Assembly: GCA_010093485.1 (NCBI GenBank)
Contig: MU001512.1
Location: 22,842 to 86,841 of the forward strand
Direction: 5' to 3'
Length of the DNA stretch: 64,000 nucleotides
Source: Karstenula rhodostoma CBS 690.94
Lineage: Eukaryota; Ascomycota; Dothideomycetes; Pleosporales; Didymosphaeriaceae
Shown here: in pieces, positions 42,577 through 58,152 of the stretch
How the letters are laid out: every line of letters begins with the position of its first letter
How positions within the stretch are numbered: position 1 is the stretch's first letter
Translations under genes and position numbers: made by a program
The notes under the pieces: model-generated
The model's input: the letters and a program-made list of their open reading frames with translations, nothing else
Told to the model about the DNA's origin: nothing
Databases searched by the model: none

Positions 42577-43455
42577 CTAATATATAAAACCAACTAAATT
42601 ACTTGCTCGATAATACTCTGTCCATGTTTTTACATCCGTATAACTCCTACAGCTTCTCTCCACGCCCCAACCCGTTACTCCCTTAAGCTTAGGATCCACA
42701 GGCTCTAGGGTCGAGTCGGCTGCGCATATTAATGATTGGCGAAGGTAGTCTAGACAATGCTTTACGTGCTGTAAGTTATTACCGTCTGGTAGGTCGCTCA
42801 CTCGTTTAATCGAAGAGAGGGCCCGTCTCAATCCCCACTGTTTAGCCATTTAGCATTCAATCGTACGCATTCCTGATAACAAGACTTACTAGGCAGTGAA
42901 GTTGATGTGCAACCGATATTGTATAGAATTGACGAGACCTCGGAGGGTACTGAACTGTCCCTCTGCCCACTGAAAAGCGGTTTAGTGATACTTGCGATCA
43001 TTACACTCGCCGCAATACATACATGGAAGTAGAGCATCCCAAGCGGAGTCGCTGTAGCTATCATCCAGATAGCTTGCACCGAAAGTACTGTTGTAATGAA
43101 ATGTGCTTTCAACGATACGGACTGGTACCGTGGCTATTGGTATGTCAGCATTCGAGCCTTTCGTATTCTCATGGGTAGAGTTACGGTTCAAATAGGCCAA
43201 TTGATGGTAGTTGAACGCTGAGCCAAGAAGTACTCCGACGATCGCAGATGCGAGAGCAACGCAGATCAGTACCACAGGGCGTGTGTGGTTATGGCAGGAA
43301 TAAGACGTAGGATGCTCATGGTCTTGTGGACAACGATCGTAATTGGATGCAGTGATAAATAAATCTCTAAGGGTGCGCAACATCTTCTTCGACTGTGAAC
43401 AAGAGGTCTTCTGGTTTTTCTTCACTATACGAGTTAGCGTTTCCTTTATTATCAT
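42577..43455 (-). CDS. UstYa-family (DUF3328) oxidase-like protein 1
   Basis: UstYa-family proteins are membrane-anchored, histidine- and cysteine-containing enzymes that oxidise or cyclise fungal RiPPs and some other peptides. My model has three exons: 43,455-43,023, 42,969-42,890 and 42,837-42,577. The introns are 53 bp (gtatgt..ttttcag) and 52 bp (gtaagt..aacag). The frame closes to 257 aa. There is a cytosolic tail, one membrane span (about residues 61-80), then the conserved SAWDALLP block (about 137-144). The first HXXHC is HQLHC (166-170) and the second is HVKHC (195-199). Length and both motifs are normal for the family, so it looks functional. A later start (Met25) is possible. It is divergent from the next UstYa gene. 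The substrate is unknown; RiPP tailoring is an inference from the family. Confidence 0.9.
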
Positions 43456-43994
43456 ATCGTGTAGTTGCTGTGTGTCGCATTATCATTTTAGGCCACTAGA
43501 CGACAACAACAACAACAACGTAGGGGCGCATCGAAACAATACACAAGAATAGGGTGGAGATGCGTACGGTGAGCGGTGATGGCGCAGGAGGCGGATGTTA
43601 AGCGGTAGCGAAGCTGGATGCCATCCCGGAGCCTGTACGAACCAGTCGCAGCATATATATAGGGGAAGAGAAGTGAATTCTCGAGCCGAGAACTGCCTTG
43701 CTGCAATGAGCGCATCATACCACCCCGCACCGGAAGAACACCTGGTCAATAACTGCGTTCGAGTCTTAGTCACTCCACTCGGCAGTTATAAAACCGGGTT
43801 CCGGCGAGAAAGCTTCTGTTTTCTCGTTCTTAAGCGATAATTTTTTGGTCCCCCTTTGTTCGTGCATTGGCAAAGCACAACGCGCCTTTTTGTCCCCCCT
43901 ACTTCATTGAGTCACCCAACCTCATAGTGAATCTCTACAATATAAGCGATAACAAAGTGATCGTGTCAGGACCTAGTGCAGCCCGCAAGCAAGC
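43456..43994. promoter_or_regulatory. Shared divergent promoter region of two UstYa genes
   Basis: This 539-bp gap separates two divergently transcribed UstYa genes, so one intergenic region probably drives both. It contains a CAA microsatellite (about 43,502-43,519), a TATA-like catatatatagg (about 43,650) and a CCGGGTTCCGG pair of CGG half sites (about 43,793-43,803) of the kind bound by Zn2Cys6 cluster regulators. Binding is not shown; only the layout is seen. Short ORFs in the region look like shadows. Confidence 0.5.
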
Positions 43995-55602: not shown

Positions 55603-56427
55603 CTCGTTGTCTGGGCTGAAGAAGCTATGACGATGGAGGAGTAGGGCTCGATCAGTGCTGTGTGGGTTCTGCGTTTCGGAGCAGGCATGGGCGTTAAGCA
55701 TCAGGGATGAGCAATGATGCGGGCCGGCGGAGGGTAGGCCCAGCAGAAGGCGCAGCCCGGATTTGTCTTCTCGCATTCGGACAAAATCCTGCAGCTTGAA
55801 TCTCATCGTCGGGACACGCTTGAGACTTCTACTATGGAGAAGGCGTCATCCTCTGAATCGTTTCGACCCTGTCTAGACCATGGCACAGGCGAGGCCGATG
55901 GTCGCCACGTCACTGCAATACTTGCCAAGTGACGCCGTTGTGCGCCACCATCTGGATACCGAATTGTCAAATACCATATGTACCTACAGGTGGATTCCTA
56001 GTGGAATGCTTTTGCGCATTAGTCACACTTCACCCATACAGTCTTTTGAAATTGGTTTTGCTGATTATAGTACTATAGATACATTTAACTAGTCCCCACG
56101 AACAGTATATCGGATAATTTTGATGATGTAAAAAGGGACGCGGAGCGTGCCAGAATCTGGGACGTCCTGGTTTCATTGGCAAAGGGGAAATCTCGGCATT
56201 GTGCCGTTCTCCACTTATGACGGCCCGAATACTGGGGTCCAGGACGAACTATGAAACAGAACGCGGGATCTGGCATCTTAGCCACAATAGTGAGAGAACG
56301 AGTACATAGACGGGGGCTCTTGGCGCGCTCTCCCACCAAACAAGTGCCTATTTTTCTTTTCGCTCATTCACTACTGCAAGCTAAGAGTATAAGTTACCGA
56401 GTGGCGTTCAAGTCGCGCGTTCCAACG
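55603..56427. other. Intergenic region upstream of the P450
   Basis: No supported gene. ORFs around 55,400-55,806 upstream of the rhodopsin fragment's Met and at 56,251-56,427 are in-frame extensions without family signal. The P450 promoter should lie at the right end. Confidence 0.5.
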
Positions 56428-58152
56428 ATGTTCACGCAGGCAGAAGAGAGGTCATTCGGACTTGCGCACAGTGTCTTTCTGCTTGTGGGAGTCTGGCTTC
56501 TGTACCAGCTCCTCAAGGCGCTATACAACGTCTCTCCGCTGCATCCATTGAGTCACTTTCCAGGGCCGAAACTCGCAGCGGCGACTTACCTACCCGAGTT
56601 CTACTACGATGTGGTCAAGTTCGGCTGCTACACCAAGGAGATTGGGGCGATGCACGAGAAGTACGGTGAGTGGGCCAGCGCCGTTGTCAGTAATGATCGA
56701 ACGAGGTTGGAAACTAAAGATCTGCCAGGTCCACTCGTTCGAATCAACCCCAACGAGGTTCATTGTAACGACATAGCCTTTGCCGATGCTATATACGCTG
56801 TCGGCGGTCGCAAGCGTGATAAGCCGATTCATCAGGTCAACGGCACAGCGTAAGCTCATTGTTGGAGTTCCAAAAACTCGCGCTAAATTTGCCCGAGAAC
56901 AGGCTCGGCCAAGCGGGATTTGGCACAGTTGATCACGATGTTCACCGTATGCGACGTAGTCCGGTTGCCAAATTCTTTTCACGTGCCATGATCGCGCAGT
57001 TGGAGCCTGACGTTCAAAGACTCGTCCAGAAGCTTTGCGATAAACTTCTAACCCAGTCGAAACCATTCGATGTCACTATGGCATACAGCTGCTTCACCTC
57101 GGATGCAATATCTGGATACGCTTTCGGTGAGAGCTTTGGGTTTCTAGAGCAAGAAGGGTGGTATCCGAATTTTCGTGAGCCTACCGCCGCTGTCCTCCAA
57201 CCGGTGTTCATCTTTCGCTTCTTCCCGTGGACTAAAGCCAGTGCTTCACTTGGAAAACTGTTCGTGGACTATCTGCCCAAGGACATTGCTCTGATGATTC
57301 GTACCCTGCAGATAGACCTCCCTGGCAGAATCCGAAATGTGAAATCGAACATTGACGCAGATGTTCATCTTGATCGGCCTAACATATTCGATTCACTCTT
57401 ACGATCTGATCTCAACGCTTTGGATAAAGAGCCCCAACGGTTGACCGACGAAGCGGGTGCAGTGGCCGCCGCAGGCACGGAGACAACAAGCTGGGCTTTG
57501 GCTGTCATGACCTATCATCTTCTGAAACAACCATTACTATTGGACAAGTTGACACAAGAGCTAGAAGGCGTTGTAGATGATGCCACCAAGTTACCCGACT
57601 GGACGGTCCTGGAGCATTTGCCGTACCTCAGTGCAGTTATCCAGGAAGGACTCCGATTGTCGTACGGTGTGTCCGCCCGGACCGCTCGAATTGCCACCGA
57701 GGAAAACCTCATTTACCGTGGGGAATGGAACAAGAAGCCGGTCGAGCTAGTCGTGCCCAAGGGCTATGCGGTGGGAATGTCCGCAGCTGTCACACACCAC
57801 AACGAAGGCACTTTCCCCCATTCCAACGAATTCGTCCCTGAGCGATGGTTGGACGATCAAAATCAGCGAAGGAAAGACATGGATCGTAGCATGCTCGCCT
57901 TTTCCAAAGGAAGCCGATCCTGTCTTGGCATGAAGTAAGTCTGAGGTTATGTTTCGAATCGCACTCTTGATTCTGACACACCCAAGCCTAGCTCTGTGCG
58001 AACTGAATCTATGTCTTACGGCTTTAGTGCTACGCGTACTGCCCCACATGTCGTTATATGGTACGACGTACGAAGATGTCGCATACCACCATGACATGTT
58101 CATCCCTATGACTAAGGACAACCGAGGGATTCACGTAACAATTCAGCAATAA
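56428..58152 (+). CDS. Cytochrome P450 monooxygenase
   Basis: This is a membrane-bound haem monooxygenase of the microsomal fungal type, resembling the trichodiene-oxygenase/benzoate-hydroxylase-like group. Four exons (56,428-56,665, 56,729-56,849, 56,903-57,934 and 57,987-58,152) give 518 aa, full length. I start at MFTQAEERSF because the upstream in-frame extension lacks family character. An N-terminal anchor lies at about residues 12-30, followed by a proline hinge (HFPGPKLA). The substrate-domain block is FGTVDHDVHRMRR. The I-helix is AGTETT (310-315), ExxR is E368-R371, PERW is at 432-435, and the haem loop is FSKGSRSCLG with Cys460. All catalytic elements are intact. It lies 5.4 kb from the third UstYa gene, so cluster membership is likely but not certain. 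Confidence 0.93.

What the first reader, a model, noticed from the sequence alone, without database searches (positions are those of the whole stretch)
42577..58152. Three intact UstYa-type genes with O-methyltransferase, P450 and MFS: a likely undescribed peptide-modifying cluster with no visible core gene
Three DUF3328 proteins, each with both HXXHC motifs, lie within 8.5 kb beside an O-methyltransferase, an MFS carrier, a P450 and a rhodopsin-domain membrane protein. Known UstYa clusters (ustiloxin, phomopsin, asperipin, cyclochlorotine) pair UstYa proteins with a RiPP precursor or an NRPS. Neither is obvious here, so either the precursor is of an unrecognised type, the core gene lies elsewhere, or the set is a cluster remnant. 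The three copies are dissimilar by eye, which argues for separate roles.
Basis: partly seen in the sequence, partly recalled or inferred. Interest (0 to 1): 0.75.

Follow-up and report, generated by a model that had tools for sequence, protein, structure and literature searches.

The report
UstYa cluster with hidden peptide gene
A fungal gene cluster with three copper-enzyme (UstYa-type) genes, thought to have no substrate gene, contains a tiny, easily missed candidate gene for a secreted peptide that may be what the enzymes modify.

Summary
The genes are real. Three spliced, intact UstYa (PF11807) genes, each with two HXXHC motifs, lie at 42577-51036 beside an O-methyltransferase, an MFS carrier, a fungal-rhodopsin protein and, further off, a P450. 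The genome matches Karstenula rhodostoma CBS 690.94. 'No visible core gene' does not hold. Between the second UstYa gene and the methyltransferase, minus strand 45496-45305, lies a two-exon candidate gene for a 47-residue secreted-type peptide with one, not repeated, putative core. Support: (a) the only protein passing E 10 in the database search, P0130, shares 19 of 22 residues of exon 2 and 12 of 13 of the signal region; (b) a second UstYa/methyltransferase locus, on C17, has a like-built peptide sharing an acidic-VVY stretch; (c) a third, weaker case at C21:228911 also begins exon 2 with DAD. Repeat-type frames appear at 3 of 9 UstYa regions tested in this genome, so the test can see them. 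No NRPS, PKS or tyrosinase match lies on contig C21. Best reading: a single-core variant of the dikaritin plan. No expression or chemistry was seen.

The parts
42577..43383 (-). Y1, UstYa protein, 233 aa, 3 exons (43023-43383, 42890-42969, 42577-42837)
   Evidence: public partial protein P0001 (146 aa) is contained in it letter for letter
43995..45026 (+). Y2, UstYa protein, 267 aa, 5 exons
45305..45496 (-). candidate single-core precursor peptide, 47 aa, exons 45421-45496 and 45305-45372, 48-nt phase-1 intron with donor GTCATT
   Evidence: relative P0130
45995..47412 (+). O-methyltransferase (Methyltransf_2), 403 aa, 5 exons; divergent from the peptide gene
   Evidence: equals public P0010
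47531..49021 (-). MFS_1 transporter, 458 aa, 3 exons
50142..51036 (-). Y3, UstYa protein, 262 aa, 3 exons
51454..52779 (+). fungal rhodopsin-domain membrane protein, 361 aa, 6 exons; divergent from Y3
56428..58152 (+). cytochrome P450, 518 aa, 4 exons; membership in the cluster uncertain

Best explanation
The locus is a UstYa-type ribosomal-peptide cluster whose precursor carries one core instead of many repeats. The 47-residue peptide enters the secretory pathway by its signal sequence (inferred from sequence). Its conserved 22-residue exon-2 part holds one Tyr and one Trp between acidic flanks (shown). The three membrane-anchored UstYa enzymes, whose catalytic domains should face the lumen and hold two coppers in the double HXXHC site as reported for CctR (PMC12435403, passages), oxidise or cross-link this part, most likely at the Tyr (inferred). 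The O-methyltransferase, divergent from the peptide gene, methylates the product and the MFS carrier exports it (inferred). Role of the rhodopsin-domain protein and of the P450: open.
For: The peptide gene lies in the gap between Y2 and the methyltransferase and is the only model there that my secreted-peptide scan returned (1 of 1). P0130, the only protein of 4 candidates that passed E 10, keeps 19 of 22 residues of exon 2 and 12 of 13 of the signal region, while the joint between them differs; its unspliced read-through has nearly the same length (21 v 20 residues), as expected if the intron is shared. The C17 locus, with two UstYa, a tyrosinase, a Methyltransf_2 and a rhodopsin gene, has a like-built peptide beside the methyltransferase. 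[DE].{0,4}VVY secreted models: 2 in 232.6 kb real, 0 in 1.86 Mb of order-1 random sequence (the motif was chosen after seeing the two). Exon 2 beginning with DAD: 2 of 14 real models (2 of 9 start sites), 0 of 89 models in 4.6 Mb random. Y1 and methyltransferase relatives share contigs in three other fungi. No NRPS or PKS match lies on contig C21.
Against: No transcript, peptide or product was seen. The donor GTCATT is unusual. The window peptide has no dibasic Kex2 site, unlike known precursors. The C17 peptide is like it only in its signal and in a short stretch, and the C17 methyltransferase is only 39% alike over 120 residues. The signal peptide was judged by hydropathy, not by SignalP. 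The neighbours and DNA of P0130 (contig of 2178 bases) were not seen, and the profile that found it contained the window peptide. The relaxed two-exon scan also gives 6 other start sites of 9, 3 of them in the control stretch right of the window, which look like chance.
Confidence: 0.6

Rival explanations
1. The cluster tailors a non-ribosomal product (polyketide or nonribosomal peptide made elsewhere), and the small secreted peptide is an unrelated neighbour.
For: UstYa proteins are also found in polyketide and nonribosomal pathways (PMC12048977 section 22; PMC12435403 passages). The nearest solved relatives of the methyltransferase are named O-methyltransferase mpaG' and lepI; that these serve polyketide-type pathways is recalled. 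The genome has NRPS and PKS matches on other contigs.
Against: 0 of 36 Condensation and 0 of 40 ketosynthase matches lie on contig C21 (terpene and other core enzymes were not searched; frames of 130 aa or more from 61.5 to 124 kb were read by eye only). An AT-rich block lies to the left. A peptide of the same build lies beside the methyltransferase of a second UstYa locus. The peptide is well conserved in P0130.
Confidence: 0.22
2. The set is a decaying remnant at the edge of an AT-rich, perhaps repeat-mutated block.
For: Y1 ends at the edge of a block of 13-25% GC. A second rhodopsin gene nearby is broken by an in-frame stop.
Against: Y1, Y2, Y3, methyltransferase, MFS, rhodopsin and P450 all translate without stops once spliced and match their Pfam families; the peptide's exon 2 is conserved.
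Confidence: 0.1
3. A chance gathering of unrelated accessory genes.
For: The genome has 59 exon-level UstYa matches, 43 genes by my own grouping, so neighbours by chance are possible. Rhodopsin-domain, MFS and P450 genes are large fungal families (recalled).
Against: Three head-to-head pairs (Y1|Y2, peptide|methyltransferase, Y3|rhodopsin). Y1 and the methyltransferase have relatives on shared contigs in three other fungi.
Confidence: 0.08

Closest known systems
Dikaritins (ustiloxin, phomopsin, asperipin-2a, victorin, epichloecyclin; list from PMC10512285 passages)
   Same: UstYa enzymes with double HXXHC beside a precursor with a signal sequence and, in several, a Tyr-bearing core; methyltransferase and transporter
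   Different: One core instead of Kex2-separated repeats; no tyrosinase in the window; an O-methyltransferase of the PF00891 type
Lichen UstY clans R1 and R2 (PMC12048977, passages and section 22)
   Same: UstY genes without a repeat precursor; clan R1 has an O-methyltransferase
   Different: There no precursor was found and a single core was only suggested; here a candidate is named
Cyclochlorotine UstYa enzyme CctR (PMC12435403, passages)
   Same: Membrane-anchored enzyme with the double HXXHC copper site
   Different: Cyclochlorotine is a non-ribosomal peptide
Repeat-type frames in this genome (C18:127048, C5:75190, C4:1542436)
   Same: Near UstYa genes, with Tyr- or Trp-bearing repeated words
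   Different: Repeated words bounded by basic residues; their signal peptides were not checked

Membership tests
UstYa / DUF3328 (PF11807) | Pfam score above the curated cut-off | tested here: met
   78.3, 145.9 and 77.3 bits against 25
UstYa / DUF3328 (PF11807) | two HXXHC motifs and an N-terminal membrane helix | tested here: met
   3 of 3 proteins; helix by hydropathy only
UstYa / DUF3328 (PF11807) | binuclear copper centre | not testable with these tools
   AlphaFold2 model of P0001 has mean pLDDT 45 and was not used
Dikaritin cluster | precursor with ER signal peptide near the UstYa genes | tested here: inconclusive
   signal-like segment by hydropathy, conserved in P0130; no SignalP run
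Dikaritin cluster | repeated cores separated by Kex2 sites | tested here: not met
   no frame with repeated 5-residue words in 42-64 kb; three frames at 109.7 and 122.3 kb are far off. The peptide has one core and no dibasic site. So not filed as a canonical dikaritin
Dikaritin cluster | tyrosinase | tested here: not met
   0 of 33 tyrosinase matches in the genome lie on contig C21. The C17 locus has one (C17:38653-39129, 48.7 bits, cut-off 22.6; one frame alone gave 22.0)
Dikaritin cluster | methyltransferase, and transporter or peptidase | tested here: met
   PF00891 and MFS_1; peptidases were not searched
Dikaritin cluster | enzymes group with characterised UstYa/UstYb in a tree | not tested
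   reference sequences were not obtained
Dikaritin cluster | cross-linked ribosomal product | not testable with these tools
   needs chemistry

The most novel reading that the evidence does not exclude
Many UstYa clusters that look as if they had no precursor use a hidden family of short, single-core, intron-split secreted peptides (signal exon, phase-1 intron, acidic Tyr-bearing exon) that repeat-based mining and gene callers miss.
Probability: 0.38. Interest if true: 0.75.

Novelty: new variant of a known kind. Interest (0 to 1): 0.6.

Why it matters
About two thirds of DUF3328 genes in a large survey are not near a repeat precursor (PMC7329392, passages), and a 2025 study of lichen clusters left the precursor unsolved, naming a single core as a possibility (PMC12048977 section 22). 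A concrete single-core candidate, with a design by which others can be sought, makes that question testable by transcript and mass spectrometry.

Tried and rejected
Repeat-type precursor: a six-frame search for repeated 5-residue words in 42-124 kb found three frames, none in the cluster: two overlapping frames at 109.7 kb and one in AT-rich DNA at 122.3 kb. Tandem repeats in 42-64 kb: 11 rows; besides AT-rich ones, a 3-nt array, a 16-nt minisatellite and two short pairs. Core enzyme: frames of 130 aa or more from 61.5 to 124 kb read by eye showed no NRPS or PKS, and genome searches put 0 of 36 Condensation and 0 of 40 ketosynthase matches on contig C21. Left side: AT-rich; C21:1-22841 reads N. 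UstYa locus on C10 (40% like Y1): no methyltransferase seen by eye in its frames and no peptide model. Solved structure of a relative of Y2: 0 hits; Y1 and Y3 were not searched there. Structure of Y1 (P0001): confidence too low to use, no fold search made. Pfam finds no family for the window peptide or P0130, and only a match far under cut-off for the C17 peptide. The C22 secreted frame and the one-exon C12 peptide gave no clear model of the same design. A tree with characterised UstYa proteins was not made. Automatic splicing gave wrong models for several genes; introns were then chosen by hand.

Full report
Source. The window is G000:C21:22842-86841 of a 44.3-Mb genome in 29 contigs. A public partial protein of Karstenula rhodostoma CBS 690.94 (P0001, 146 aa) is contained letter for letter in Y1, and that strain's methyltransferase (P0010) equals my corrected model; both lie on a public contig of 988968 bases. 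The fungus belongs to the Pleosporales, Didymosphaeriaceae.

Genes. Spliced by GT-AG introns of 43-65 nt: Y1 (- 42577-43383), Y2 (+ 43995-45026), methyltransferase (+ 45995-47412, corrected), MFS (- 47531-49021), Y3 (- 50142-51036), rhodopsin (+ 51454-52779), P450 (+ 56428-58152); an amino-acid permease (+ 60197-61609) has one exon. Pfam gives UstYa three times, Methyltransf_2, MFS_1, Fung_rhodopsin, p450 and Aa_trans (run with the uncorrected methyltransferase). All three UstYa proteins have two HXXHC motifs and one N-terminal hydrophobic helix. Some donors are weak (GTCCGT in Y2, GTCTGC in Y3, GTTAGT in the methyltransferase), so details of the models may shift.

Setting. GC per 2 kb is 13-25% from 1 to 42 kb and 47-51% from 44 kb to the end of the window; AT-rich DNA returns near 121 kb. 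In the whole genome, 0 of 36 Condensation (PF00668), 0 of 40 ketosynthase (PF00109) and 0 of 33 tyrosinase (PF00264) matches lie on contig C21; these searches see exons and score only the best candidates. Other core enzymes were not searched.

How common is a UstYa gene without a visible precursor? This genome has 59 exon-level UstYa matches, 43 genes by my own grouping. I tested nine UstYa regions for repeated peptide words: window, C18, C5, C4, C17, C21:225k, C22, C12 and C2 (thresholds differed slightly between calls). Three of nine (C18, C5, C4) have frames with repeated Tyr- or Trp-bearing words bounded by basic residues; their signal peptides were not checked. So the test can see such frames, and the window has none. 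In a survey of 1461 strains 31.8% of 9399 DUF3328 counts were within 15 genes of a repeat precursor (PMC7329392, passages). So the lack of one is the usual case. The lichen study found UstY clusters without repeats and suggested a single core (PMC12048977, passages and section 22).

The candidate precursor. A scan for signal-like starts gave 10 rows in 42.4-64 kb; the highest score was at 45496, minus strand. Exon 1 (45496-45421) codes for a signal-like stretch, a 48-nt phase-1 intron follows, and exon 2 (45372-45305) codes for DADSAVVYPASVDLSWVESSEE. The gene is divergent from the methyltransferase and convergent with Y2. In the Y2-methyltransferase gap it is the only model that the scan returned.

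Relative elsewhere. I searched 5.8 billion proteins with a profile of this peptide and the C17 peptide. Four candidates were scored and one passed E 10: P0130, 57 aa, E 9.9e-5. It matches 19 of 22 residues of exon 2 and 12 of 13 of the signal region, and the stretch between is 21 residues against 20 in the unspliced window. I infer, without its DNA, that it was called unspliced and has the same intron. The joint varies and exon 2 does not, as expected of a constrained product. Its neighbours are unknown.

Second and third loci. C17:32-50 kb has two UstYa frames, a Methyltransf_2 and a Fung_rhodopsin frame and a tyrosinase (48.7 bits against a cut-off of 22.6; one frame alone gave 22.0). Y1 matches there at 49% over 63 and 39% over 70 residues. 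Between the tyrosinase and the methyltransferase, at C17:40587 plus strand, is a two-exon peptide of 73 aa with a phase-1 intron after the signal and a tail DTADDQVVYTAYPPNVDEK. A third case, C21:228911 minus strand, between a rhodopsin frame and a UstYa frame, has a 51-nt phase-1 intron and exon 2 DADLDSILIPIQADGGVDYS; it is weaker, since another acceptor is possible and the stricter scan did not find it.

Controls. Secreted models of at most one intron with [DE].{0,4}VVY: 2 in 232.6 kb of real sequence and 0 in 1.86 Mb of order-1 random sequence; per model, 2 of 372 against 0 of 751. With a looser pattern there were 6 real hits, 4 of them readings of one frame inside the span of Y1, against 1 random. 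Strict two-exon design: 2 models in 230.3 kb against 4 in 2.76 Mb random. Relaxed: 14 models at 9 start sites in 230.3 kb, of which 3 sites are the ones named here, against 89 in 4.6 Mb random; none of the 89 begins exon 2 with DA. The patterns were chosen after seeing the cases, so these numbers describe rarity and are not tests; P0130 is the more independent support, though its query profile held the window peptide.

Synteny elsewhere. Nine Y1 relatives were found, one being the strain itself. Of the other eight, three (Arthroderma sp. PD_2, Clonostachys byssicola, Lophiostoma macrostomum) have a methyltransferase relative on a contig of the same length among the 120 listed of 305 (run with the uncorrected model); in Arthroderma the locus tags are consecutive (FQN49_000912 and 000913). 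Distances in the other two are unknown.

Mechanism. CctR is reported as membrane-anchored, with its domain in the organelle lumen and two coppers bound at the double HXXHC motif (PMC12435403, passages); UstY enzymes are credited with the Tyr ether cross-link of asperipin-2a (PMC12186524, passages). A signal-bearing peptide with one Tyr is a fitting substrate. Which bond is made, where the peptide is cut without a dibasic site, and what the rhodopsin protein does remain open. My model of P0001 had mean pLDDT 45 and is not used.

Literature limits. Searches for UstYa with DUF3328, UstY clusters, dikaritin with single core, UstYa with O-methyltransferase, DUF3328 with single-core or small secreted, and UstYa with rhodopsin listed, by title and abstract start, no report of a single-core UstYa precursor; some lists were cut (20 of 28, 25 of 27, 12 of 26), and most subscription papers are not held.

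Noticed in passing
window 43854-43944 and 54330-54420: Inverted copy, 91 nt, 88% complementary, of part of the Y1/Y2 intergenic stretch, lying upstream of a 149-aa open frame at 54529-54978 that has no Pfam match.
   Followed up: partly
window about 55010-55601, minus strand: Second fungal-rhodopsin gene, shortened and with an in-frame stop.
   Followed up: partly
C18:127048-127410, C5:75190-75807, C5:63460-63903, C4:1542436-1542906: Repeat-type peptide frames in UstYa regions of the same genome: possible ordinary dikaritin-like precursors.
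   Followed up: partly
C12:1536223, minus strand (L034): One-exon 77-aa secreted-type peptide with HH and KGKR near a UstYa gene that is the best other match of Y3, and near a rhodopsin-domain frame.
   Followed up: partly
window, C17, C12, C21:225k: A Fung_rhodopsin frame lies near UstYa genes in four regions checked by Pfam; other regions were not checked, and a functional link is unexplained.
   Followed up: no
window 58974-59046: Perfect 16-nt minisatellite, 4.6 copies, intergenic.
   Followed up: no
window 1-42500: Block of 13-25% GC, possibly repeat-mutated, with 36 N from 13581; C21:1-22841 to its left reads N.
   Followed up: no
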